Virus record (IMG/VR): IMGVR_UViG_3300010149_000222
Location: 1-21,573 of that record
Length of the DNA stretch: 21,573 nucleotides
Reading direction: 5' to 3' (one strand)
Origin: a virus
The position numbers and the translations under genes were made by a program. Under the pieces are notes generated by a model. It had not been told where the DNA came from. It did no database searches and saw only the letters and a list, made by a program, of their open reading frames with translations. Positions 1,681 through 20,086 of this stretch are shown here, piece after piece (position 1 is the first letter of the stretch; each line of letters starts with the position of its first letter).

Positions 1681-3127
1681 AGTCACACATGAAGATCGTC
1701 AGATAGTCATGCAAGACTTTCAATCTATCTGTCTATCGTTGGAAAATCTCAATGGTGTGTTTGCTCAGTTCTATGAATTGGGCAGACCAACAGTGACTTA
1801 TGATGTAGACACTGCTGCTGTATCATTCAACAAAGAAGGTGCATGTATTGACTTTTTGATCAACCCTGCATTCTGGCGACTTCTAAACTTTGACACTAAG
1901 CTGTTCTTGATTTGTCATGAATGCTTACATGTTATCCTTGATCATGGTAAGCGGTCATCAAAATCAAACTTCGACAAAGACACAACTGGTATGGAACGAC
2001 AGTTGACCAACATTGCTATGGATGTTGTGATCAACGAAACCATCGTAGGACATTTTGGTATCAGACGCGATTCGCTAAACTTCGGCGAAGCGTTTGACAT
2101 TCAACATCCCGAAGGCAGTGGGTTAGACGATGACCATCCAGCACAAGCACTAAGTGAAATCAAGCATGGTGCATTCTTGGATACTGTGTTTCATAAAATC
2201 AAACCGGACATCGAACCAAAGAAATCGTATGAGTATTACAACGATGTGTTGATCAAGTACTTCAAAGAAGAAATCAGTGAAGCAAAAGATCAACAACAAG
2301 CAATGCGTGAAATAGCAGATGCTTTGTCCAAGATGAGCAAGGATGATCATGAAAAACTCGCTGAGTCTATGGGTGAAGGTTCGGACAAAGACATGAAATC
2401 TGTTGTCGGTGAAATCATGGAGAATGCTGACAGGAAAGACTTGGATGACCTGAGTGATGCCTTGACTGAAAACTTCGGTAAAGGTAATCCCGGCGATCCA
2501 TTGATTGCTGGTTCTTTGGAGCGAGTCATTCAACAAGACTATCGCAAGGTGAAAAAACTCAAGCGATGGCAAGACCTGTTTCGTCGGTTTGTTCACAAGA
2601 CACAAGACAAGCAGAATGCTTTACAGTGGATTCATGCCGACCGCAGACGTAATCTGTTGCCTAGCAAGTATCTGTTACCATCAAAGAATCGTGCCAACGG
2701 TAAAGACAATCGATACTTGGTGTGGCTGTTCATTGATTCGTCTGGTTCATGTGAACACTTGAAAGAGCAGTTCTTCAAGGCAGCGTATTCACTAGACCCC
2801 AAGTATTTCAATGTTCGTTTGTTCTCACGAACTACTGAGGTCAAGGAATTAGATTACAAGAATCCTGTGGTCGCCGGTTATGGTTCTGATGACTATGGAT
2901 GTATTGAACGGTACATTCAACAACAATTATCTAGTAGAAGTATTGACAAATACCCCGAGATTGTGATACACTTTACTGATGGATATGACTGTTCCGGTGT
3001 GATGGTTCAGCCAGAAAAACCGCTTAACTGGTTTTGGTTTCTGACTGATGAAATGTACACCGACTGGATTCCTAAAAAGTGTATCGAACACAATCGCGTC
3101 TTTAAGTTATCGGAGTTTGAGTCTTGA
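1673..3127 (+). CDS. vWA-domain protein with HExxH metallopeptidase-like N-domain (DUF2201-like)
   Basis: 484 aa. The start is fixed by GGAGG with a 5-nt spacer before the ATG at 1673; the frame is open further upstream, but that is overlap with the AAA+ gene. The N-terminal domain has HECLHVILDH (H82, E83, H86, extra H91), followed by NIAMDVVIN at about 113-121. This is the pattern of the putative metallopeptidase domain that precedes VWA-like domains in the DUF2201 family. The middle (about 180-280) is charged and helical. The C-terminal 137 residues form a von Willebrand A fold with MIDAS residues D355-x-S357-x-S359 (IDSSGS) and a second acidic site at TDG (D436). Such proteins pair with MoxR AAA+ ATPases, here encoded immediately upstream. 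Whether it is an active protease, a metal-dependent adaptor or a defence/counter-defence component cannot be told from sequence. Confidence 0.85.
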   Translation: MSEVTHEDRQIVMQDFQSICLSLENLNGVFAQFYELGRPTVTYDVDTAAVSFNKEGACIDFLINPAFWRLLNFDTKLFLICHECLHVILDHGKRSSKSNFDKDTTGMERQLTNIAMDVVINETIVGHFGIRRDSLNFGEAFDIQHPEGSGLDDDHPAQALSEIKHGAFLDTVFHKIKPDIEPKKSYEYYNDVLIKYFKEEISEAKDQQQAMREIADALSKMSKDDHEKLAESMGEGSDKDMKSVVGEIMENADRKDLDDLSDALTENFGKGNPGDPLIAGSLERVIQQDYRKVKKLKRWQDLFRRFVHKTQDKQNALQWIHADRRRNLLPSKYLLPSKNRANGKDNRYLVWLFIDSSGSCEHLKEQFFKAAYSLDPKYFNVRLFSRTTEVKELDYKNPVVAGYGSDDYGCIERYIQQQLSSRSIDKYPEIVIHFTDGYDCSGVMVQPEKPLNWFWFLTDEMYTDWIPKKCIEHNRVFKLSEFES

Positions 3128-3675
3128 ACATTTTTTGCGTTGACAACGATCCTACTGTTTCTGCTACTCAACTATGTGATAAGCATGTAGTCAAGATGGT
3201 AACCGAAACTAGCCAGATGCTTGTCTCTGCTTTGCGTAGATACAACTGCCCTGAGCATCATCTTCCGTTGACTAAAGCAGGAACAGTATCGAAAGGTGGA
3301 TACCATCATCATCCGTCTACTAGATGGGCTGGTGATTCATCTGCAAACTTTCAGTGGTTGTTGATGCATGGCAAAGCGTTGTGCCGAGAATACACCAAGC
3401 GATACAAACGCGAACATTTTTGCGAAGCGGGTATTCATAAGATGGAACGGTATTGGGTGAGGTATATTCCGTTCGGTGTGAAGACTGCCTTTGCGATTGC
3501 AATTTCAGAAGACATGAAATGTAGACAAGTTTCTCACTTCAACACACTTAGCCCCGTTGTTCAGTATCGTCTGTATTACAAACTCGACAAATCAAACATT
3601 GCGAAGTGGATCAAGCGACCAGAATCAAAACCCGACTGGTATGATTTGCCTGTTAAAGAAATCATCAAAGGATAA
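3124..3675 (+). CDS. Conserved phage protein of unknown function (MNIF family)
   Basis: 183 aa, starting at a TTG (3124) that overlaps the vWA stop as TTGA. The start is supported by GGAG 8 nt upstream and by the N-terminus MNIFCVDNDP, which matches the usual beginning of a family seen in many tailed phages ('MNIFvlD.dP..aA...cDKHvvKM..E..Qml'). Conserved-looking elements are CDKHVVKMVTETSQML, HHHPSTRWAGDSSANFQWL, EYTKRY and a C-terminal AKWIKRPESKPDWY. The His, Asp and Trp content suggests a globular, possibly enzymatic protein, but I know of no established function. It is translationally linked to the AAA+/vWA pair by position, which may simply reflect an accessory operon. Confidence 0.8.
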   Translation: MNIFCVDNDPTVSATQLCDKHVVKMVTETSQMLVSALRRYNCPEHHLPLTKAGTVSKGGYHHHPSTRWAGDSSANFQWLLMHGKALCREYTKRYKREHFCEAGIHKMERYWVRYIPFGVKTAFAIAISEDMKCRQVSHFNTLSPVVQYRLYYKLDKSNIAKWIKRPESKPDWYDLPVKEIIKG

Positions 3676-4030: not shown

Positions 4031-5365
4031 TTAGCTTAGGTTGTCAACGATGGTGAATCGGTAGTACTTGTTAGCACTAGGGACCAACTCGCCGGTGCCT
4101 GCGGTTGCGTTAGCAAACGGGTTGCTGACAAGACCGTAACGGGTCTTGAATGCAATCTTCGGCTGGAAGGTGTTCTCACCAACTGCACGAACCATTTGAA
4201 GCGGAACGTATGGGCAGTAGAACATACCAGCATCACGCTCGTCAGAACCCTTGTAACCAGCACAGTAGAAGTCAGTGGTTGACGATGCTGAGAAGTATGG
4301 GTCAACGATTACACGAACATTGCCGTGTAGGTTGCCAACATAGGTAGCACCGGTGTCATCACCGAGTTCGTTGGTCTGGAATGCAGGTGCGTAGTCAAGA
4401 ACGCCTGCAAGGTGTAGAGCAGCAGCAACGTCAGACGAAGTGACGATGAAGTTACCCTTACCACGACGGGTATCCTTAGCGATGTCGTTCAGGTCACGCT
4501 GGATGTTGAAGACAAGACCCTTCCAACGCTCTACCGACCAACGACCGTTGGTGTCTTGGTCGAGGTCAACAGTACCGGTTGAGGTAACGCCAACCTGCGC
4601 ACCCGGCTTAGCGATGGTGTACATCTTACGGACTACTTCGCGGTTGATTTCAGCTAGGATTTCTTGGGTAAGAATGTTCGCTAGCTCTGTCTCTGCGTCA
4701 AGACCGTGAACAGCCTTCAAGTCTTGTGCGAGTTCAGTTGTGTACTCTGCCTTTAGAGCGCGGCTCTTAGCAGTTACAGTAACCTTCTCGATGCTGAATG
4801 CCATCTCGTTGAAGTCCTGAGTAGCACCGGTTGAACCGAGTGCTTCTGCACGTGCAATGCTCATACCGTCACCAGTGGTGTATGCACCATTGGTTGGGTC
4901 TGAACCAGCGTGTGTACCGGATGAAGACGATGAAGTTTCGTCTTGGAAACCGGAGAAGTCGGTGTCAGCTTCGTTGTGGAGAGCTTCAGTACCGCCTTGT
5001 GATGCATAGTTTGAACGCATTGCGAAGATCAAGCCGGTAGGACCGGTCATTGCTTGAACACCGCAGATGTCGTATGCAAGTAGGTTAGGAACCGAACGTC
5101 GAAGCATCGACATAAGAATCGGATCGTAACCAGCAACTGCCGAACCGTCAGAAGCGTTTGCACCAAGTGCGCCGCCTGCTGCGTTGACAGGTGTTTCGAA
5201 GAGGCTAGTTGCACGTGATGCAGCTAGTTCTCTTTGAGTGTTTTCAAGAACAGCAGCGGTAACGCGCTTACGTGTTGCTGCATTCTTGCCTTCGATTGGT
5301 GCGAATTCCTTGTTTTCAAGGATTGGCGACCATTTGCTATAAAGACCTTCTGAAACCATTTCCAT
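4031..5365 (-). CDS. 23: Major capsid protein, gp23
   Basis: 444 aa (T4 gp23 is about 521), strongly gp23-like throughout. The N-terminus LYSKWSPILENKEF parallels T4's LLNKWKPLLEGEG. It also has RRSVPNLLAYDICGVQAMTGPTG, AYTTELAQDLKAVHGLDAE (read here with KAEYTTELAQDL), ILAEINREVV, RRGKGNFIV, and FKTRYGLVSNPFA near the end. It forms the capsid hexamers. The ATG at 5365 has TAGGAG about 7 nt upstream. The shorter length reflects a smaller insertion region (about 138-175), which here is Gly/Ser-rich with a five-serine tract (S145-149). A likely gp21 cleavage site is L-F-E|T after E57, close to the T4 site after residue 65. It follows gp22 with a 45-nt gap and is the last gene before the terminator. 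No gp24-type paralogue follows. Confidence 0.97.
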   Translation of the reverse strand: MEMVSEGLYSKWSPILENKEFAPIEGKNAATRKRVTAAVLENTQRELAASRATSLFETPVNAAGGALGANASDGSAVAGYDPILMSMLRRSVPNLLAYDICGVQAMTGPTGLIFAMRSNYASQGGTEALHNEADTDFSGFQDETSSSSSGTHAGSDPTNGAYTTGDGMSIARAEALGSTGATQDFNEMAFSIEKVTVTAKSRALKAEYTTELAQDLKAVHGLDAETELANILTQEILAEINREVVRKMYTIAKPGAQVGVTSTGTVDLDQDTNGRWSVERWKGLVFNIQRDLNDIAKDTRRGKGNFIVTSSDVAAALHLAGVLDYAPAFQTNELGDDTGATYVGNLHGNVRVIVDPYFSASSTTDFYCAGYKGSDERDAGMFYCPYVPLQMVRAVGENTFQPKIAFKTRYGLVSNPFANATAGTGELVPSANKYYRFTIVDNLS

Positions 5366-5410: not shown

Positions 5411-6559
5411 TTAGTTATTGCGACCAAAACGTGATGTCATTGCCTTAGCAAGATCATTTACGTATGAGTCTGATGATACTGGTGTGTCTGAAACTTCTTC
5501 GGTGATTTCACCTTGACCTTCAGCGATCATTTCTTCTGAAAGAACCTTGTCTGAAGATTCTTCGGATGATGCTGGTTGGTAGTGTTCAACGAAAGTTTCG
5601 ATCTTTGATTCTAGTTCTTCAACGGAATCGTATGATGCGTTTTCGACTAGAGAAACAATCTTTGCCTTGTCAGAAGCAGTCATGTCTGCACATGCTTCGT
5701 CGAGTAGACGCTGCTTGTAAAGCTCTTGGGTTGCTTCTTTGAGTTCAAGGATGGTGCTGATTGATGCGTCAAGCTGTTGCTTGAGTTCGTTGTTTTCTGA
5801 AACAGTTGTTTCTAGAACGTCTTCCTGATCAGCAGGGATTTCTAGGTTGTGCTGTTCCATAAGACCACGAAGACCTGAGAAGAACGACTCAGCGATTTCT
5901 GCCTTGATGCCGTTGTCAACTGCAAGTTGGTTCTCAGACATCCACTCGCTACCAGCGTAGTCTAGGTATGAGTCTAGCTTACCGGTTAGGTCTTCGCGTA
6001 CTGCGTCAACTTCTTCTTGAAGTTGTGCGTTGTAGAGTTCGTTCAAGCGAACCTTTTCTTCGTTGATGCTTTGTGCGAAGCGTGCTTCAAGAAGTGAGGT
6101 TGCCTTGTTCTTGAATTCTTCCGAAAGATCAGCTTCAGCACCGAGAAGTTCGTTGACTTCTTCGGAAAGATCAACTTCGTTTTCAACAAGCTGATCACCA
6201 GCGATTGCTGCTAGAACAGAATCAAGACGCTCAGAAAGAGTATCTTTGTCAAGTGCTAGAAGTGATTCGTATGCCTTGGTTACCATCTTTGCCTTGGACG
6301 CATCCTTCATTGGCTCAGCGTTATCCTTGTCGGCAGGACGCTTAGACTTTGCGCTCTTATCGTCTGCCTTGAACGGACCTGAATCCTCATCGCCCTTAAC
6401 AACTGGCTCACCAAGGTCTTCAACCTTGTCTGCGTGTTCGCCCTTAGCGGCAACCGGCTTTTTCATGGCATCAGCTTTTGCTGCTTTTGCAGTTTGCTGA
6501 TCCTTGTTGAGCTTGGTTCCACCCTCGCCTTGATTTTCCATTTCGTTTAGCATATCCAT
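5411..6559 (-). CDS. 22: Prohead core scaffold protein, gp22
   Basis: 382 aa from ATG 6559, chosen because GGAGA lies about 9 nt upstream; the longer frame from a TTG at 6604 would translate through the late promoter. Residues about 195-235 contain LDSYLDYAGSEWMSENQLAV and AEIAESFFSGLRGL, the diagnostic gp22 segment. A Gln/Glu/Leu coiled coil follows (about 250-300). T4 gp22 is about 269 aa; the additional length is an N-terminal Lys/Ala/Asp-rich low-complexity part (about 15-95) plus extra helices. The protein forms the prohead core around which gp23 assembles and is expected to be degraded by gp21 before DNA packaging. Several L-x-E and I-x-E tripeptides are available for cleavage. Confidence 0.93.
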   Translation of the reverse strand: MDMLNEMENQGEGGTKLNKDQQTAKAAKADAMKKPVAAKGEHADKVEDLGEPVVKGDEDSGPFKADDKSAKSKRPADKDNAEPMKDASKAKMVTKAYESLLALDKDTLSERLDSVLAAIAGDQLVENEVDLSEEVNELLGAEADLSEEFKNKATSLLEARFAQSINEEKVRLNELYNAQLQEEVDAVREDLTGKLDSYLDYAGSEWMSENQLAVDNGIKAEIAESFFSGLRGLMEQHNLEIPADQEDVLETTVSENNELKQQLDASISTILELKEATQELYKQRLLDEACADMTASDKAKIVSLVENASYDSVEELESKIETFVEHYQPASSEESSDKVLSEEMIAEGQGEITEEVSDTPVSSDSYVNDLAKAMTSRFGRNN

Positions 6560-6593
6560 GTTACTGTTCTCCGGTTTACGGGTTTCTAGAGTG

Positions 6594-6601
6594 TATTTAT
6601 A
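6594..6601 (-). promoter_or_regulatory. T4-type late promoter TATAAATA for gp22-gp23
   Basis: A perfect TATAAATA octamer 35 nt upstream of the gp22 ATG and downstream of the gp21 stop codon. It would drive gp22 and gp23, the two most abundant head proteins, as a unit ending at the 3977-4006 terminator. Confidence 0.85.
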
Positions 6602-6604
6602 CAA

Positions 6605-6637: not shown

Positions 6638-7288
6638 TTAGAATGTCTTCTTAATAAAGTCTGCGAATGCTGCTTTCTTAACTTCATCCAGCTTGCGTGC
6701 TGGTGATTCTTTGATTGCCTTCTGTGCGGCTTCGATGTGACGCTCGACATAGCGACCATCAACATACAACCATTCAACACCCTCAAGGATGCCATCAACA
6801 AAGCAGTCTGGACCCGATGGGTCGGTTACAATGTCTGCTGCTGTTGCTAGGGTGAAGTCGTTACCAACTTCCATGATGCCATCATGACGTTCTTTTAGTG
6901 TTCCCATACCACGGGATGAAACGCCAAGTTTTACACCACCTTCAAGTAGACCTTTTACAATGTTGCCACATGGGGTGTCTAGGATTTTTGCCTTGCCGAC
7001 ATAGTTGGTTCCGCTTTCACGTAGATCGGTGATCAGGTGAGAAACACGGTCAGGATTGATTTGGCAAGACTGTGGGTGTGTTAGTTCCCCCATTGCTCGA
7101 CCGGTCTTGATGTATTTATCATTGTAATTACGTACAGCATTTTCCATAACTGCCTTTGGATAGACACGACCGTTATGGTTCTTGAGTTCGGACTGTAGGA
7201 AGATACCCTCGATTGAGTATTCTTTCTTACCGTTCTTCTCTTCAGTGATAATCTGTACTTCTTGTTTTTGTTCAGTGATTAGCTTCAA
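6638..7288 (-). CDS. 21: Prohead core protease, gp21
   Basis: 216 aa (T4 gp21 is 212). Serine protease of the T4 prohead/herpes assemblin type. The core region reads GIFLQSELKNHNGRVYP, then GELTHPQS with the likely catalytic H71, and GVSSRGMGTL with the nucleophile among S124/S125. It cleaves scaffold, capsid and internal proteins at [L/I]-x-E sites. The start codon is TTG at 7288 giving MKLITEQ, a usual beginning for this family. AGGA lies 7 nt upstream and there is only a 4-nt gap after the preceding stop. It is in the core-protein operon and is separated from gp22 by an inverted repeat and a late promoter. Confidence 0.94.
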   Translation of the reverse strand: MKLITEQKQEVQIITEEKNGKKEYSIEGIFLQSELKNHNGRVYPKAVMENAVRNYNDKYIKTGRAMGELTHPQSCQINPDRVSHLITDLRESGTNYVGKAKILDTPCGNIVKGLLEGGVKLGVSSRGMGTLKERHDGIMEVGNDFTLATAADIVTDPSGPDCFVDGILEGVEWLYVDGRYVERHIEAAQKAIKESPARKLDEVKKAAFADFIKKTF

Positions 7289-7292
7289 TGTC

Positions 7293-8687
7293 TTATCCTC
7301 GCTGTTTGCGTCGTGCTGCTAGTTGGGCAGCTTTTGCCTTGAGTGCTGCGATCTTCGCGTCACTTGATGCTAGGTCGGCAGATGTTTGTTTTGCCAACTT
7401 TGCTCTTGCTCTGTCTGCTGCTGATTTGAAATTATCCATAGACGATTGTGCTTTTTTCAGGCTATCTTTTGCCTTCTTTAGTCTGTCGTTTGCCTTGGTT
7501 TGTCTTTGTTTTGCACGACGGACATCAGTAGCATCTGCTTCTTCAATGCTCGATTCTTCAACCTTTGCACCAGCACGCCATTGGCGACATGACCAGTAGC
7601 CCGCTGTTGTCTTGTCTTTTTTATCTGCACAGTTATGACGAGCGCGGAAGTTCTTACGACGCTCCGGATCATCCCGCTTGATTTCCATGTTCGGATCGCC
7701 GAAGTTCACCTTGACGATGTTGCCCTTTGCGTTCTTTACATAGACAGAAAACTTTTTAGGACCGCCCGGTGTGCGGAATGGTTTGTTGAGCGGCTTGTCT
7801 GCTTTCTTCTCTTCTTTGATCGGTTCAAGACCATATTCTTTACGCTTCACGTTGAATGCTTTGATTGCTTTCTTACGTGCTGCTGAACCGGGTAGTCCCG
7901 TGGTCATTGCTTTTCGTGCTAGTTTAAGAAACTCTGCATCATTAGTCCAGTCTTTGCCTTCTTCTTTCAGCTTGGTCTTGACCATGTTTGGCTTATCGCC
8001 TTTAGGGTTGCTCTTGTCACGCGATTCGGCGTCTCTTTTTCTGCTCACGGCTGATTTCTTTTCTTTGCTTGACAATTTACCCGCAGATTTAGCAGGGCGA
8101 CATTTAGGGTAGCCCTTACCATCAGCATCTTTTCTGCCGCATGATGGGTGCTTTCCGTCTTTATCTTTTCGGCTGATATCTACCCAATCTTGCTTAGCCC
8201 ATTTACCTAAACCAGAATCTGAATACACACTTTTGTCATCCAGACCCTTCTTACCTTCGCTTACCTTTTCCCAACTGCCACCCTTTGATTTATACCACTT
8301 AGCTGCCCATGCGTTTGCGTATGCACTTGGGTATACATCAAACTTGGATTTAGCTTTGGCGATAGCTTTTTTCCATAGGGCAGGGTTGCTAGGACTGTTC
8401 TTCTCAGTCAGTTGAGTCTCTTCATGTAGGATACGCTTCATCTTTTTGATAGCGTCTTTCTCTGACATTTCACGACCAGCGATTGTTACTGTCTTTCTCT
8501 TTGTGTTGCGGAAAACAGAATGACCAGCACGCTCAAACTTAACAATCAGCTTGTCGATTGCATCACCTTTGCTCATACGATCTTGACGGTCTGCGGCGGC
8601 ATTGAAGCTACCACTGCTGAAGTTGTTCCAGCTAGCAGATTCGTCTAGAAATTTATTCGCGTTGTTGATGGCTTGTGTTATTTTCAT
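7293..8687 (-). CDS. Lys-rich internal/prohead core protein with DUF5872-like domain
   Basis: 464 aa, very basic. The N-terminus MKITQAINNANKFLDE|SAS resembles a T4 capsid-targeting peptide ending in L-x-E. Residues about 101-140 (NPALWKKAIAKAKSKFDVYP, then SAYANAWAAKWYKSKGGSW) and 162-200 (WVDISRKDKDGKHPSCGRK, YPKCRP) form a DUF5872-like unit seen in phage and large-virus proteins. Residues about 305-371 carry a second conserved-looking module (RTPGGPKKFSVYVKN, NFGDPNMEIKRDDPERR, RARHNC, YWSCRQW) with paired His/Cys that could bind metal. The tail (about 388-464) is a Lys/Ala/Gln coiled coil. The gene overlaps the upstream one by ATGA. It is probably packaged in the head core with the DNA; the function is unknown. 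Confidence 0.8.
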   Translation of the reverse strand: MKITQAINNANKFLDESASWNNFSSGSFNAAADRQDRMSKGDAIDKLIVKFERAGHSVFRNTKRKTVTIAGREMSEKDAIKKMKRILHEETQLTEKNSPSNPALWKKAIAKAKSKFDVYPSAYANAWAAKWYKSKGGSWEKVSEGKKGLDDKSVYSDSGLGKWAKQDWVDISRKDKDGKHPSCGRKDADGKGYPKCRPAKSAGKLSSKEKKSAVSRKRDAESRDKSNPKGDKPNMVKTKLKEEGKDWTNDAEFLKLARKAMTTGLPGSAARKKAIKAFNVKRKEYGLEPIKEEKKADKPLNKPFRTPGGPKKFSVYVKNAKGNIVKVNFGDPNMEIKRDDPERRKNFRARHNCADKKDKTTAGYWSCRQWRAGAKVEESSIEEADATDVRRAKQRQTKANDRLKKAKDSLKKAQSSMDNFKSAADRARAKLAKQTSADLASSDAKIAALKAKAAQLAARRKQRG

Positions 8688-9739
8688 TCGTCTTCAACTT
8701 CTGCGTCTTGGACTGGTGAACCCTTAGTAGGCTTTTCTAGCTTGATGTTCTTTTCTTTTTCTTTAGCCTGAGCGATTGATGGCTTACCTTTTTCGCCCGG
8801 CTTTAGTGATGACTTGAAGTTAGCAAAGGATTTTGATGTATCTGCTTGTTGCTTTTCGTCTTCTTTGTCTTCAGCGTCTTTTTGCTTCTCATCATCTGCC
8901 TGCTGCTTTTCGTCTTCTGCTTCTTTCTTCTCTTCGTCTTTGTCTTTTTGCTCTTGCTCTTTCTCTTGCTCTTTCTTTGTGTCTTCTCGATCCTTTTCGA
9001 CCTTCTTCTTCATTGGGTCTTCGTCGGCTTCAGAGAAAGAGTAGATGTACTCAACGTCTTCAACAAAGAACACATCTTCCAGAAATTTATTTAGCTCTTG
9101 TGCCGAGACTTGATAGCGAACAGTGGTGTCTTTGGTGACCTTGGCAATCTTGTCAAGACCATGCTTCTCTACTTGCTGCATGAAGTAGTCAACAGCTTCT
9201 TTCTTATCACCGTCCATCTTCTTGTATGCACGTGTCTTTTTGTATGCATCTTCTGCTTCTTCAATACACTCTTCTGCAAAGAACACATCATAGTCAACAG
9301 AAGTTGCAATGCGAGAAAACCGGTCAAACGTCATTGCGTTTTCACCGGTAATCTGGTTTGATGGGATTGGTAGGAAGTCTTCGTATGCAAGAGTAACGCC
9401 TACACCTTCGTGCTTCTCACATAACCAGTTGATGAAATCATCATTGTCAATCTTTGATTCGAACATGATAGTAGTCGAGCCATCAGTCTCTGTGAAGAAT
9501 GAATCGTTTTTAGAAATCTTGTAGTCACGTAGCTTGTCTGCAAACTCGTATGCAGGAATAGATTCATCAAACTTGACAGCAAACTCAACAGACTCTTTCT
9601 TTGCGAGCTTAGTAGCAGTAGCGTACATGACACTCTTAGCGTCATCGCCGTATTGCTTTTCGAAGTCGCCCTTGTTGCGTTTCATCGCTTTGACGATCTT
9701 CTCTTTTTTGCCTGCTTGTTGTTTGGTCAGTTTTGCCAT
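8684..9739 (-). CDS. Charged prohead core/internal protein (MYATATK motif)
   Basis: 351 aa. The N-terminal 50 residues (KRNKGDFEKQYGDDAKSVMY, then ATATKLAKKE) match a motif I recall from head-core-region proteins of marine T4-like phages. The middle (about 50-230) is a mixed globular part. From about 240 onward it is an extreme Lys/Glu/Asp/Gln low-complexity segment with near-repeats of EDEKQQAD, probably a long helix or disordered tail. The corresponding DNA, about 8840-9010, is rich in CTT/CTC/GTC. The position between portal and gp21, with an ATGA overlap into the next core gene, indicates a core or internal protein. There is no T4 homologue that I can name. Confidence 0.78.
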   Translation of the reverse strand: MAKLTKQQAGKKEKIVKAMKRNKGDFEKQYGDDAKSVMYATATKLAKKESVEFAVKFDESIPAYEFADKLRDYKISKNDSFFTETDGSTTIMFESKIDNDDFINWLCEKHEGVGVTLAYEDFLPIPSNQITGENAMTFDRFSRIATSVDYDVFFAEECIEEAEDAYKKTRAYKKMDGDKKEAVDYFMQQVEKHGLDKIAKVTKDTTVRYQVSAQELNKFLEDVFFVEDVEYIYSFSEADEDPMKKKVEKDREDTKKEQEKEQEQKDKDEEKKEAEDEKQQADDEKQKDAEDKEDEKQQADTSKSFANFKSSLKPGEKGKPSIAQAKEKEKNIKLEKPTKGSPVQDAEVEDE

Positions 9740-9741
9740 AA

Positions 9742-10617
9742 TTACTTTACCAGTTTGAATGCAATGCTTGCTAGTTGTTTAACGGATAGCTTTTCCATTT
9801 TTGCCTTGTTCGCATCACTGACTGCGTTGTAGACTTGCATGATGACGTTTGCTGTGGTTGCGTCAAGACCCTTTTCATGCTGGTGGTTTTTTGCAACACG
9901 ACGGGCTAGATCGATAGCAGTTTCTTTTGCTTCTTTTACAAGAACAACGAATTCATTGTTGCCTTGCTTATGCACTTTGGATTTGACCTTTTTGGCATAC
10001 TTTTCAGCTTCCGCTTTGTTATTGAAGAAGACCGGATATGGTTCCGCTTTCATCTTTCGACCGAAATAGTCACGACCTGTTGCTCTTGGCTTTTCTCCGT
10101 CCCAACGGTCTTTGACATCATACCCGGCATCGTCGTATCGAGCTTCTAGAATCTGCTTTAGTTCTGCTTTGAATTTAGAAACAGGCGCGTCCATTGTTGT
10201 GCTTGCTTTATATGTCTTGCCATTTTTTGTGACTTCAATTCGCTGAACCCAAGTGTTGTATCCCTTTGCCTTAACCGAACCATCAGGCGATGAATAATTC
10301 CACCACTTGTTCTTGTTAGCAAGACGTAGCTTATTCATTGCTGCAATATGCTCGTCTGTGGATTCGGTAATGCCTTGATTCTTAGCAAACTTCAACGCAC
10401 CATCTGCTGATGGGTGTGTACCCAAGTCAAGAGTTTTACCATTGTCAAAGACATGGAACATCTTGTATCGGTCTTGTCCAGACTTAGGCGGTCGCTCGTA
10501 TACTTCAAACGTACCGCCATCTTTTGCCTTGACAGACTTTACCTTCTTCATGCCCTTCATGCTTGATTCGGCAAGAACTTGTTCTGCTTTTCGTAGTGCT
10601 TGTTTTGGATTTGGCAT
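9742..10617 (-). CDS. Putative internal/prohead core protein, basic
   Basis: 291 aa, not recognised beyond its position. The N-terminus MPNPKQALRKAEQVLAE|SSM ends in L-A-E at residues 15-17, a T4 gp21-type cleavage motif at the place expected for a capsid-targeting propeptide. The rest is mixed alpha/beta with many Lys and aromatic residues. Two similar-looking stretches (FEVYERPPKSGQDRYKMFHV and PYPVFFNNKAEAEKYAKKVK, each beta then helix) suggest repeated small domains. The C-terminal about 60 residues are helical and Ala/Lys-rich. It lies in the core-protein operon, 12 nt after the preceding gene and 2 nt before the next. Confidence 0.72.
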   Translation of the reverse strand: MPNPKQALRKAEQVLAESSMKGMKKVKSVKAKDGGTFEVYERPPKSGQDRYKMFHVFDNGKTLDLGTHPSADGALKFAKNQGITESTDEHIAAMNKLRLANKNKWWNYSSPDGSVKAKGYNTWVQRIEVTKNGKTYKASTTMDAPVSKFKAELKQILEARYDDAGYDVKDRWDGEKPRATGRDYFGRKMKAEPYPVFFNNKAEAEKYAKKVKSKVHKQGNNEFVVLVKEAKETAIDLARRVAKNHQHEKGLDATTANVIMQVYNAVSDANKAKMEKLSVKQLASIAFKLVK

Positions 10618-11214: not shown

Positions 11215-12762
11215 TTAATACCTATCGTCTTCGTTTTGACTATAGAATGAGTCGTTCTTTTCGGCTTCAATCTGCTCACGCATTTGAAGGATTTCTGTAT
11301 CGGTCATGCCTAGAATCTTTTTCTGCACGTATTGATGTGAGTAGTAGACCCCGACATATTCTTTGACATCGCCTACCGCACGTAGCTGTTCTTGTAGGAT
11401 GTCAATCTCTTTTAGCTGTGTGAAGAATGAATCGTTCGCAAAGCTGAAGTTGATCTTTCCACGAATCTTCTGCCAGTCTGCCAAGGTGATGACTTTGGTT
11501 AGGACTAGCTGCACACGCAATGCTTGAAGAAACAGTTCAGCAAACTTGTTTCGTAGCACATCAACAAATCGTGCAAACTTAACTTCATCACGGGTAATCT
11601 CTGATGCTCTGCCCAATGACATACCGTTTTCAGGTTGCAATCGTGAGATTGGTACGTTGAGTGACTTGTATAGTTTCTCTTTGAAGTACTGTACGTCTTC
11701 GATGTCACCCAAGTTCTGACCGCCCGGTAGTGAGGTAACTTCTGTACCACGACCACCTTCTCTACGTGGAAACCAGAAGTCATCAGTAATGGTCATGTGC
11801 TTACCATCACTATCAATCGTTCCACTATCAGCATCGTAGATGAGCTTACGACGGTATTTATTCATCTGCTCACGCACGTATTGTGCTGCTTTGCTTGATG
11901 GCAACGCACCAACGTCGATGTAAAATACTCTTCGCTCAGGTGCGCGGGAGAAACGATAGATCACTAGCGAATCTTCCATCATCTTCAACTGGTTGAGTGG
12001 TCGAACTGCCTTGTGCAAGTGACCAACAACACGGTTTGACTTCGAATCAAAAAGACCAGAAGTAACATGCAGGACTGAATCTTTTGGTAGCATGATGTTA
12101 CCAGTTGATGTTCCTGCCATTGCGGGCGATGCTGTCATGTTGACTGTTGCAGCACCGTTCTTCATTTGCAGAGACTGGTCGTATGTGTAGATAGATTCAA
12201 TCTTCTTTGCATACTTGGCTTTTGTCTCTTTGTCTTCGTCTTCTTCAATCTTGGTTATCTTCTTCAAACGTCGCGGGTCAAGGCGGCGCATGTCAAGGAT
12301 ACCACGATCAGGATTATCTTTGTCAATACTAATGTGGTAGCAGATGCGACCATCTACATACCACCGCTTGAACAAATCATGACCGTCTGATGAGAAGTTA
12401 AGCAAATCTAGTACATCTTCGAATGCATCAGAAATTTTATTCTTAACATCATCACTGATCTTAACCATGCTAAGATCAATCGAAACTGGTTGACGGTCTT
12501 CGTTATAAACGATTGCCTCATTGCAAACATCGGTCACTGCGTCATCCACTTCTTGGTGGACAAGCATTGACCGATATCTGTTTATTAGCTGCCCTTCGTT
12601 TTCACGTGAAGCGTCGATTTCATAGGGCGTGCCAAATCTACCACCCGATATAACAACATCGGATTCTGCCATGACATCATCTTGCGCGGTAACCGGCTTG
12701 ATGATCTTTTCATCTGCTTCTTGACTAGATGATTTTTTTAGTTCAAAACCAAAGAGCTTCAT
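11215..12762 (-). CDS. 20: Portal vertex protein, gp20
   Basis: 515 aa (T4 gp20 is 524). Typical portal features are YRSMLVHQEVDDAVTDVCNE near the N-terminus, RRLDPRRLKKI, the very characteristic YRFSRAPERRVFYIDVGALP, EGGRGTEVTSLPGGQNLGDI, and RLQPENGMSLGRASEITRDE towards the C-terminal third. It forms the dodecameric ring at the unique vertex, nucleates prohead assembly and docks the gp17 motor. GGAGA lies about 5 nt before the ATG. The C-terminus is acidic. A 42-nt gap separates it from gp19; a CTAAATAA motif sits at the gp19 stop. Confidence 0.97.
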   Translation of the reverse strand: MKLFGFELKKSSSQEADEKIIKPVTAQDDVMAESDVVISGGRFGTPYEIDASRENEGQLINRYRSMLVHQEVDDAVTDVCNEAIVYNEDRQPVSIDLSMVKISDDVKNKISDAFEDVLDLLNFSSDGHDLFKRWYVDGRICYHISIDKDNPDRGILDMRRLDPRRLKKITKIEEDEDKETKAKYAKKIESIYTYDQSLQMKNGAATVNMTASPAMAGTSTGNIMLPKDSVLHVTSGLFDSKSNRVVGHLHKAVRPLNQLKMMEDSLVIYRFSRAPERRVFYIDVGALPSSKAAQYVREQMNKYRRKLIYDADSGTIDSDGKHMTITDDFWFPRREGGRGTEVTSLPGGQNLGDIEDVQYFKEKLYKSLNVPISRLQPENGMSLGRASEITRDEVKFARFVDVLRNKFAELFLQALRVQLVLTKVITLADWQKIRGKINFSFANDSFFTQLKEIDILQEQLRAVGDVKEYVGVYYSHQYVQKKILGMTDTEILQMREQIEAEKNDSFYSQNEDDRY

Positions 12763-18208: not shown

Positions 18209-18907
18209 TTACTTTTTCCACGGTGTTTGGCTTTTTCCATCGAACTTGTCTATCCATCGCCGGACTACTTTCGCGGTTACATCATACTCTCTTGCTGCTG
18301 CCCTGACCGATTCGAACACACGACCATCGACAATACACGTTGTGTCTCTTTTGATGGACATTCCATTATTTCGCTGTAACCAGTAGGTGATGGTATTTGG
18401 ATCAACACTATAATGTCTTGCTGCCGCGCTCTTTGATGGGAACTCTACACCATCAATCTTACATTTATGTCTATGCTTCATTTCACTTTTTCCGATACCA
18501 GCCCATTTCTTTGCGGTGGTTATACATACACCATAGTGTTTAGCTGCGTTGGCATAACTACTAAACTCTATTTCATCAATCCGACAAGGTATGCTTTGGG
18601 CGAATGCTCTGGATTCTTTCATCTTCGCATACCGTGACGATGTTATGTATGTTCGATCTTGATCACTACTGGATCGGCTCATACAGAAGAAGGCATTGTG
18701 TAAAGATTTATTCTGTGGATAAATCTTGGTTAGTAGTAGGTGTGCGATGTAGTGTGCCTTCGCTGGAAGATCAACAAGATTGTCTTCGCTATCGTCGCCG
18801 CCCATACATCTCGGTATGATGTGGTGACGCTCGGTGTATCCATTGTATAGGTTGTTGCTATAGTGTTCTATCAGGTTGTTGTATCGGGTCTGGTAAATAG
18901 TAGTCAT
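18209..18907 (-). CDS. HNH homing endonuclease with three NUMOD/IENR1-like repeats
   Basis: 232 aa. The N-terminal HNH domain has YTERHHIIPRCMGGDDSEDN, then LVDLPAKAHYIAH, with H28/H29, N43, H52 and H56 as probable metal/catalytic ligands. Three helix-turn-helix repeats follow at about 109-136, 150-178 and 192-220, each starting with 'c.idg.eF.S...AA..Y.v....v..W'. They are typical of the NUMOD1/IENR1 DNA-binding modules of phage homing endonucleases. The gene sits between gp14 and gp15, with its own late promoter 17 nt upstream and a terminator just before that. GGAGA lies about 6 nt before the ATG. It is probably a free-standing mobile gene that cuts phage genomes lacking it; its target is unknown. 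Confidence 0.93.
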   Translation of the reverse strand: MTTIYQTRYNNLIEHYSNNLYNGYTERHHIIPRCMGGDDSEDNLVDLPAKAHYIAHLLLTKIYPQNKSLHNAFFCMSRSSSDQDRTYITSSRYAKMKESRAFAQSIPCRIDEIEFSSYANAAKHYGVCITTAKKWAGIGKSEMKHRHKCKIDGVEFPSKSAAARHYSVDPNTITYWLQRNNGMSIKRDTTCIVDGRVFESVRAAAREYDVTAKVVRRWIDKFDGKSQTPWKK

Positions 18908-19669: not shown

Positions 19670-20086
19670 TTAATACAGTCCTGTTAAAATATCTGGCGTG
19701 GTGTCTATAAGCTCTCGAAACCCGCGCGATGCTTTTTTGAGTTTGGCAATACCATCGGTGTATGGTGTGGTATCAACCGCAACTTCTAATTTACGACCGC
19801 GACGATATCGGATAATGCCCGACATATACTTAGCACCGTAGCCGTTAGGTTGCCCGATTCCGTAATGGATTGCCATGTATGCGTCCCATACAAATACAGT
19901 CGAGTCATCGTCGGTCAGTAGAAATTTTGCTTTCTTCTGCCGTGTCTTTTCGAAGAATCGCATAATCTCATTCGCACTGGTTGGATTGACCAGACCACGT
20001 AAAGAACTCATCTCGCCCCGTCCACCTGCAATTTTATATGAAATCGTTTCAGGTTTCTCTAAAATGTATTGTTTGAACGGCTTCAT
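19670..20086 (-). CDS. Hypothetical protein between gp13 and gp14
   Basis: 138 aa, function not recognised. The N-terminus MKPFKQYILE|KPE resembles the T4 internal-protein capsid-targeting peptide (a short basic-aromatic start ending in I/L-x-E). The body contains a segment, RGLVNPTSANEIMRFF then DDSTVFVWDAYMAIHYGIGQ, like a module I have seen in assorted phage proteins ('LRGlv.p...vyvWDAy.A.H'). It ends with basic helices. It starts 2 nt after the gp13 stop and ends against the gp14 ATG, so it is in the neck operon. It could be a neck accessory protein or a protein carried inside the head. Confidence 0.75.
   Translation of the reverse strand: MKPFKQYILEKPETISYKIAGGRGEMSSLRGLVNPTSANEIMRFFEKTRQKKAKFLLTDDDSTVFVWDAYMAIHYGIGQPNGYGAKYMSGIIRYRRGRKLEVAVDTTPYTDGIAKLKKASRGFRELIDTTPDILTGLY

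What the first reader, a model, noticed from the sequence alone, without database searches (positions are those of the whole stretch)
8640..10617. Capsid-targeting-like N-termini ending in [L/I]-x-E
The 464-aa (MKITQ...FLDE|S), 291-aa (MPNPK...VLAE|S) and 138-aa (MKPFKQYILE|K, at 20086) proteins start with a short amphipathic peptide ending in the tripeptide cut by T4 gp21. T4 internal proteins such as IPIII begin with a similar peptide that targets them into the prohead and is then removed. This predicts which unknown proteins are carried inside the head.
Basis: partly seen in the sequence, partly recalled or inferred. Interest (0 to 1): 0.58.

Follow-up and report, generated by a model that had tools for sequence, protein, structure and literature searches.

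The report
Address tags for phage head cargo
One small protein of this T4-like ocean phage starts with the same short removable address tag that sends T4's internal proteins into the phage head, and two neighbours carry weaker versions; in related cyanobacterial phages proteins with this tag are mostly ones already found in purified particles.

Summary
The three N-termini exist as described. The window is a T4-like contig with its own gp21-type (S77) protease. The bare [L/I]xE motif is weak evidence: 7 of 22 window genes carry it at residues 8-20, against a 17% background (p = 0.07). Two stronger tests separate the candidates. (1) The 138-aa protein (MKPFKQYILE|K) has all four IPIII determinants (aromatic 4 and 7, hydrophobic 8, Glu 10), only one [LI]xE in the whole protein (as in T4 IPI, IPII and IPIII) and a basic body. 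The IPIII-type prefix is rare; Glu sits at position 10 in 12 of 40 cases in 12 S77+ phages, against about 7% background. (2) Applied to three cyanophages with published virion mass spectrometry, the pattern, fixed beforehand, hit 6 proteins; 5 are reported or labelled virion proteins (cytidylyltransferases, SAM hydrolase, a small protein), 1 is not. The 464- and 291-aa proteins lack residues 4/7, but lie in the gp20-gp21 prohead-core slot, where N-terminal [LI]xE is enriched (17/46 versus 17%, p = 0.0012) and relatives reuse one leader on unrelated bodies. They may be cargo, gp68-like core proteins, or multi-site precursors. Cleavage and packaging are not shown for any of the three.

The parts
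19670..20086 (-). 138-aa protein (W138), candidate CTS-tagged internal head protein; pI 9.7; no Pfam or PHROG match; between gp13 and gp14
20057..20086 (-). IPIII-type leader MKPFKQYILE, predicted cut E10|K11
   Evidence: positions 4, 7 targeting; 8, 10 cleavage; sister allele MKSFKQYILEK in L007/L008
7293..8687 (-). 464-aa basic multi-module protein (W464), pI 10.1; matches to phrog_27331, phrog_23735, phrog_7595 (all unknown function)
8640..8687 (-). leader MKITQAINNANKFLDE, predicted cut E16|S17; further [LI]xE at 89, 95, 242, 292, 383
9742..10617 (-). 291-aa basic protein (W291), pI 9.8; no family match
10567..10617 (-). leader MPNPKQALRKAEQVLAE, predicted cut E17|S18; further [LI]xE at 85 and 158
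8684..9739 (-). 351-aa acidic protein (W351) in the same slot, no N-terminal [LI]xE; 52% identical relative in L010/L011
10630..11199 (-). 189-aa acidic protein (W189, pI 4.2), in the position of T4 gene 67; no detectable sequence identity to T4 gp67
6638..7288 (-). gp21-type prohead protease (Peptidase_S77); itself has [LI]xE at 6 and 16
5411..6604 (-). gp22-type scaffold, 19 [LI]xE sites; true start probably at an internal ATG
4031..5365 (-). gp23 major capsid protein
11215..12762 (-). gp20 portal, upstream border of the core slot
18209..18907 (-). homing endonuclease with a chance N-terminal [LI]xE (residue 14): likely a false positive of the bare motif

Best explanation
The 138-aa protein is a T4-IP-like internal head protein. 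Its first ten residues act as a capsid targeting sequence that docks it on the prohead core; the phage's own gp21 protease cuts after E10; the basic 128-residue body stays in the head with the DNA and is injected at infection. The 464- and 291-aa proteins are prohead-core-slot proteins that also enter the prohead and are cut by gp21 at their N-terminal sites; whether they end as injected cargo or as processed core proteins is open. Shown here: sequence features, gene position, pattern statistics, and agreement of the IPIII-type pattern with published virion mass spectrometry in related phages. Inferred: targeting, cleavage, packaging and injection in this phage.
For: S77 protease in cis, 1.6e-37. 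W138 has F4, Y7, I8, E10; in IPIII residues 4 and 7 govern targeting, 8 and 10 cleavage (passage of PMC9026906). The same prefix with Glu at 10 picks exactly IPII and IPIII in T4; over 12 S77+ genomes Glu is at 10 in 12 of 40 prefix-bearing ORFs, p = 1.2e-5 against 7%; 0 of 3 in four genomes without S77. T4 IPI, IPII and IPIII have one [LI]xE each, W138 also one, whereas gp22/67/68 have 3.5-6 per 100 aa. External test with the pattern fixed: S-CREM2 3 of 3 hits are listed virion proteins (p = 0.017 over all ORFs, 0.0036 without the named structural proteins), or 4 of 4 with the annotated start of the kinase; S-SM1 1 of 1 is T4-GC190, reported in its virion; S-SCSM1 1 of 2. Leaders are kept on cytidylyltransferases and kinases whose bodies differ widely. 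Slot enrichment 17/46; reused leaders in the slot of relatives. All three candidates are basic, as the T4 IPs are.
Against: No proteomics of this phage. W138 and W291 have no relatives beyond near-identical copies, so site conservation could not be tested; W138 was absent between gp13 and gp14 in the relatives fetched. W464/W291 lack aromatic residues 4 and 7. HTVC008M, S-PM2, S-BM3, RL38J1 and immuto gave no strict hit. One S-SCSM1 hit (110 aa) is labelled hypothetical, not virion. A looser pattern gave 4 undetected hits among 8 in S-CREM2. Virion detection does not prove an internal position; the S-CREM2 authors left contamination open. W464's N-terminus is not significantly similar to that of the protein that replaces it in L010 (94 of 2000 shuffles as good).
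Confidence: 0.68

Rival explanations
1. W464 and W291 are the counterparts of T4 gp68 and neighbours: structural prohead-core proteins, cut by gp21 at several places and largely cleared, not carried to the host; only W138 is cargo.
For: They lie between gp20 and gp21, where T4 has 67 and 68. T4 gp68 is basic (pI 10.1), gp67 acidic (4.1); here W464/W291 are basic and W189 acidic. W464 has 6 [LI]xE against 1.8 expected from composition, W291 3 against 1.4.
Against: No sequence identity to T4 gp67 or gp68. Site density (1.0-1.3 per 100 aa) is far below that of gp22/67/68 (3.5-6). W464 carries conserved modules, the last of which is found as separate small proteins in other phages.
Confidence: 0.4
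2. W464 and W291 are polyprotein precursors: each [LI]xE separates small basic domains which gp21 releases inside the head.
For: W291's three sites read VLAE|S, GITE|S, ILE|A; 5 of W464's 6 sites lie outside the PHROG-matched modules and the sixth at a module edge. In 19 of 33 non-redundant proteins with the W464 C-terminal module an [LI]xE lies within 30 residues upstream, shuffled mean 12.9 (15 of 1000 as high); the same module occurs alone in 104-118-aa proteins. T4 gp67 is annotated as a precursor of internal peptides.
Against: Statistics are modest, several of the 33 proteins come from contigs where no S77 was found, and structure models were too poor to define domains (mean pLDDT 45).
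Confidence: 0.2
3. The motif is chance: ordinary N-termini that happen to contain [LI]xE.
For: 7 of 22 genes, p = 0.07; a homing endonuclease and gp13 also have it.
Against: Does not explain the IPIII-type pattern of W138, its virion correlation in cyanophages, or slot enrichment.
Confidence: 0.2
4. The N-terminal tag marks late-expressed or virion-associated proteins for another reason (for example attachment to the tail or outer capsid).
For: Mass spectrometry of whole virions cannot place a protein inside the head.
Against: Match to the IPIII determinants, and presence in S77+ but not in the S77- genomes tested.
Confidence: 0.1

Closest known systems
Phage T4 internal proteins IPI, IPII, IPIII (capsid targeting sequence)
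   Same: W138: ten-residue leader with aromatic 4 and 7, hydrophobic 8, Glu 10; single [LI]xE; basic body; gp21 protease in cis.
   Different: Body without a detectable family; gene sits between gp13 and gp14; P1' is Lys instead of Ala. W464/W291 have longer leaders without residues 4/7.
T4 prohead core proteins gp67 and gp68
   Same: W189/W291/W351/W464 occupy the gp20-gp21 interval; an acidic protein comes first, basic ones follow.
   Different: No sequence identity detected; larger; far fewer cut motifs.
Virion-associated enzymes of T4-like cyanophages (cytidylyltransferase/NMNAT T4-GC190, APH/Ser-Thr kinase, SAM hydrolase)
   Same: Same IPIII-type leader: MKNFSSFLTE, MKKFSAFLNE, MKSFLQFLKE, MKRFDAFLTE, MKDFDSFLEE.
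   Different: Recognisable enzymes; W138 has no detectable family.
Phage P1 DarB N-terminal packaging signal; long propeptides of phiKZ-like phage SPN3US
   Same: N-terminal signals that load head proteins (passages).
   Different: Different length and motif; SPN3US protease cuts after AxE (passage).

Membership tests
T4-type CTS-bearing internal protein | gp21/S77 prohead protease in the same phage | tested here: met
   PF03420 1.6e-37
T4-type CTS-bearing internal protein | Targeting residues: aromatic at 4 and 7 (W138) | tested here: met
   F4, Y7; rule from PMC9026906 passage
T4-type CTS-bearing internal protein | Targeting residues: aromatic at 4 and 7 (W464, W291) | tested here: not met
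   T4/I7 and P4/A7
T4-type CTS-bearing internal protein | [L/I]xE cut site ending a leader of about 10-20 residues | tested here: met
   E10, E16, E17; non-specific on its own
T4-type CTS-bearing internal protein | No further [L/I]xE in the body (true of T4 IPI-III) | tested here: inconclusive
   W138 met (1 site); W291 3 sites, W464 6 sites, not met
T4-type CTS-bearing internal protein | Basic body | tested here: met
   pI 9.7, 9.8, 10.1; T4 IPs 8.9-9.5
T4-type CTS-bearing internal protein | Site conserved in divergent homologues | tested here: inconclusive
   Only near-identical copies; one P3S change leaves the W138 site intact; W464 alignment not significant
T4-type CTS-bearing internal protein | Present inside virion with new N-terminus; leader transplantable to a reporter | not testable with these tools
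   needs virion N-terminomics and fusions
T4 prohead core protein (gp67/gp68) | Gene between gp20 and gp21 | tested here: met
   W189, W291, W351, W464
T4 prohead core protein (gp67/gp68) | Sequence homology to gp67 or gp68 | tested here: not met
   W189 vs gp67, W464 and W291 vs gp68
T4 prohead core protein (gp67/gp68) | Rich in cut sites (3.5-6 per 100 aa in T4 gp22/67/68) | tested here: not met
   W189 1.6, W291 1.0, W464 1.3, W351 0.6 per 100 aa

The most novel reading that the evidence does not exclude
Marine T4-like phages run a general payload system: a short gp21-cleaved N-terminal address, in lineage-specific dialects, loads enzymes and small basic proteins into the head for injection (cytidylyltransferase/NMNAT, kinase, SAM hydrolase, and here the unknown W138). 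In this phage the gp20-gp21 slot adds multi-domain precursors (W464, W291) that gp21 cuts at each [LI]xE into separate payload proteins.
Probability: 0.3. Interest if true: 0.75.

Novelty: new member of a known kind. Interest (0 to 1): 0.52.

Why it matters
Which phage proteins enter the host together with the DNA is mostly unknown outside T4. If the leader is a general address in marine T4-like phages, injected effectors can be read from genome sequence, and it offers a loading route for enzymes that cyanophage virion studies found but could not explain (carried or contaminant). W138 then becomes a concrete candidate for an early effector, such as an anti-restriction protein.

Tried and rejected
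Bare [LI]xE as evidence: rejected, too frequent. Homologues of W138 and W291: only near-identical contigs in IMG/VR; two E > 1 hits each in phage records, not pursued beyond looking at S-RSM4. Similarity of the W464 leader region to the 190-aa protein that replaces it in L010 (shared NFSSGSF): not above shuffles. W138 relatives between gp13 and gp14: none in L093-L109; 15 of these 17 loci showed both genes, 2 were too short to show gp14. Single-sequence structure models of W138 (mean pLDDT 37) and W291 (45) are useless, so no fold search was made. Looser leader pattern (38 observed against 12.9 expected over 12 S77+ genomes plus the window; 2 against 2.1 in S77- genomes) is less specific: in S-CREM2 4 of 8 hits detected, p = 0.12. 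Paper searches for virion data of immuto, Cr30 and Melnitz gave nothing usable. 'Capsid targeting' with 'cyanophage' is held together by one paper only, a T4 review. S-PM2 carries the cytidylyltransferase domain inside a longer open frame without the leader and its protein was not seen in that virion according to PMC3037559 (passage); S-PM2 start sites are unclear, so this is only suggestive. The S-CREM2 'Cas9' (ORF12) had no Pfam match, so that label is the authors'.

Limits of the tests: frames were called mechanically from the first ATG/GTG/TTG in 20-kb tiles; genes across tile ends are lost, and the last parts of W03, W04, W06, W08 and W09 were not fetched. 50 of 52 S-CREM2 virion proteins were matched to called frames. 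The three virion-data phages were chosen because such data were in print, and after I knew that the tagged P-SSM2 protein was a cytidyltransferase; the pattern itself was fixed earlier. The 4 of 4 figure uses the annotated GTG start of ORF14, found after I had seen that it is a virion protein.
Full report
What the window is. It is a 21.6-kb virus contig with a T4-like late cluster on the minus strand: gp13, 138-aa protein (W138), gp14, a homing endonuclease, gp15, gp16, gp17, gp18, gp19, gp20, then 189-, 291-, 351- and 464-aa proteins, gp21, gp22, gp23 (T4 gene numbers assigned from family hits and order). The prohead protease is Peptidase_S77 at 1.6e-37.

Observation. The three leaders are exactly as reported. 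The bare tripeptide is weak: T4 has [LI]xE with E at residues 8-20 in 50 of 235 genes, against 14% of internal windows (282 of 2012); 12 S77+ genomes have it in 389 of 2271 non-redundant N-termini, and the window in 7 of 22 (p = 0.07). Chance alone would give about four.

The 138-aa protein. Mutational work on IPIII, as reviewed in PMC9026906 (passages), places targeting at residues 4 and 7 and cleavage at 8 and 10. W138 has F4, Y7, I8, E10. A prefix pattern of this type (M[KR]x[FYL]xx[FYLHWM][ILVMFAT]x, any residue at 10) occurs in 40 of 2846 called frames in 12 S77+ genomes; 12 of the 40 have Glu at position 10, against 7.1% Glu background, p = 1.2e-5. In T4 the hits are IPII and IPIII. In four genomes without S77 (N4, SPO1, CRP-2, HTVC027P) the prefix occurs 3 times in 413 frames, none with Glu. 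Five S77+ genomes gave no hit (HTVC008M, S-PM2, S-BM3, RL38J1, immuto). By this count roughly three quarters of such hits exceed chance. T4 IPI, IPII and IPIII each hold a single [LI]xE in the whole protein, the propeptide site; so does W138. The shredded core proteins gp22, gp67 and gp68 hold 3.5-6 per 100 aa. W138 is basic (pI 9.7).

External test. After fixing that pattern I looked for T4-like phages with published virion mass spectrometry. For S-CREM2 I read the virion table (Table 3, PMC10665884, sections 18 and 19). Three of 193 called frames match the pattern and all three are in the table: SAM hydrolase MKDFDSFLEE, a 78-aa protein MKDLHSFLTE, cytidylyltransferase MKNFSSFLTE (50 of 52 listed proteins matched to frames; p = 0.017, or 0.0036 after removing the 24 proteins that the table names as structural). 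With the annotated GTG start the APH-like kinase MKRFDAFLTE is a fourth. ORF136 (MQTFSMFFSE), between the terminase genes and in the table, fits except for residue 2. In S-SM1 the only strict hit among 202 frames is SSM1_190, T4-GC190 cytidyltransferase, MKKFSAFLNE; PMC3037559 (passages) reports T4-GC190 in the S-SM1 virion. In S-SCSM1 two of 248 frames match: the NMNAT MKSFLQFLKE, labelled virion protein in the record and reported in PMC9602691 (section 13), and a 110-aa protein MKTFKQFMSE, labelled hypothetical, which counts against. In all, 5 of 6 mechanical hits (6 of 7 with the kinase start) are reported or labelled virion proteins. The kinase leader is also kept in S-CRM01 (MISFDQFLSE), whose protein aligns to the S-CREM2 kinase only from residue 22. 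The S-CREM2 and S-SCSM1 papers left open whether such enzymes are carried or contaminants; in the parts that I read neither mentions a targeting sequence, and a full-text search for 'capsid targeting' with 'cyanophage' finds one T4 review.

The 464- and 291-aa proteins. They lack aromatic residues at 4 and 7. Support is positional. In 62 relatives with both borders, plus the window, the slot holds 46 non-redundant proteins; 17 have [LI]xE at residues 8-20 against 17% of N-termini in general (Fisher p = 0.0012) and 11% of internal windows of the same proteins (130 of 1186). In some relatives (L021, L024, L028, L032) neighbouring slot proteins share one leader (such as MKSFDNSHDTLADAAKEILE|G and MEDFNKKHDSLAEAAKEIFE|A) on unrelated bodies; these five pairs are the best-scoring of all same-locus pairs found. 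Others (L031, L063, L067, L087) carry MKKFN.Y..E or a close form in the slot. So the slot of related phages does hold tagged proteins, with leaders of more than one kind. Both window proteins have additional [LI]xE sites (3 and 6 in all, against 1.4 and 1.8 expected). In W464 five of six lie outside the PHROG-matched modules; in homologues of its last module an [LI]xE often stands just upstream (19 of 33, shuffled mean 12.9, 15 of 1000 as high). This allows a precursor reading, at modest strength. They show no identity to T4 gp68.

Mechanism, with status. gp21 present: shown. Leader of W138 fits the IPIII rules: shown. Leader type tracks virion presence in related phages: shown by agreement with published data, 5 of 6. 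Docking to the core, cleavage after E10, packaging and injection of W138: inferred. Function of the W138 body: unknown; by analogy with IPI (gmrS/gmrD inhibitor, passage of PMC3012670) an early anti-defence role is a guess.

Novelty. The tag is a known kind. W138 is a new candidate member with an unknown body. The wider use of the tag on enzymes in cyanophages is, within the papers I could search, not described; subscription papers were not searchable.

Noticed in passing
L220:1824-8408 (phage C48C1); L269:12203-16866 and L270:1306-1701 (Melnitz-3): Groups of neighbouring or nearby genes, several with an F-x-x-[FY]-[IL]-x-E leader: NMNAT-like proteins, small very basic proteins, W464-module proteins, a 407-418-aa conserved protein. 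Looks like a payload gene cluster of marine T4-like phages.
   Followed up: partly
L276:1803-2318, L281:3806-4354, L281:17631-18632, L281:18632-18931 (Flavobacterium phage immuto_2-6A): Four different proteins share a leader of the form FDLKKFLVE|NKLTxNS: a possible lineage-specific address tag.
   Followed up: no
S-CREM2 ORF14, S-SM1 SSM1_190, S-SCSM1 NMNAT, P-SSM2 PSSM2_194, L031:4415-5281: Directly behind the leader several cargo proteins share a second short module (roughly A.KL.L...G.G.W.D..G), which may be part of the packaging signal.
   Followed up: no
   Followed up: partly
L302:8015-8380 (Caulobacter phage Cr30): 121-aa protein MKTFKQFFNE|S followed by YYHGTSYKNA..., which resembles the start of an ADP-ribosyltransferase-like fold (recalled, not searched); could parallel T4 Alt.
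   Followed up: no
window 5411-6604: gp22 frame begins at TTG with a 15-residue extension; the ATG reading MDMLNEM... is the likelier start and begins like the relative in L010.
   Followed up: no
window 3124-3675: Pyrimidine dimer DNA glycosylase (PF03013, 6.5e-11) on the plus strand beside the head genes.
   Followed up: no
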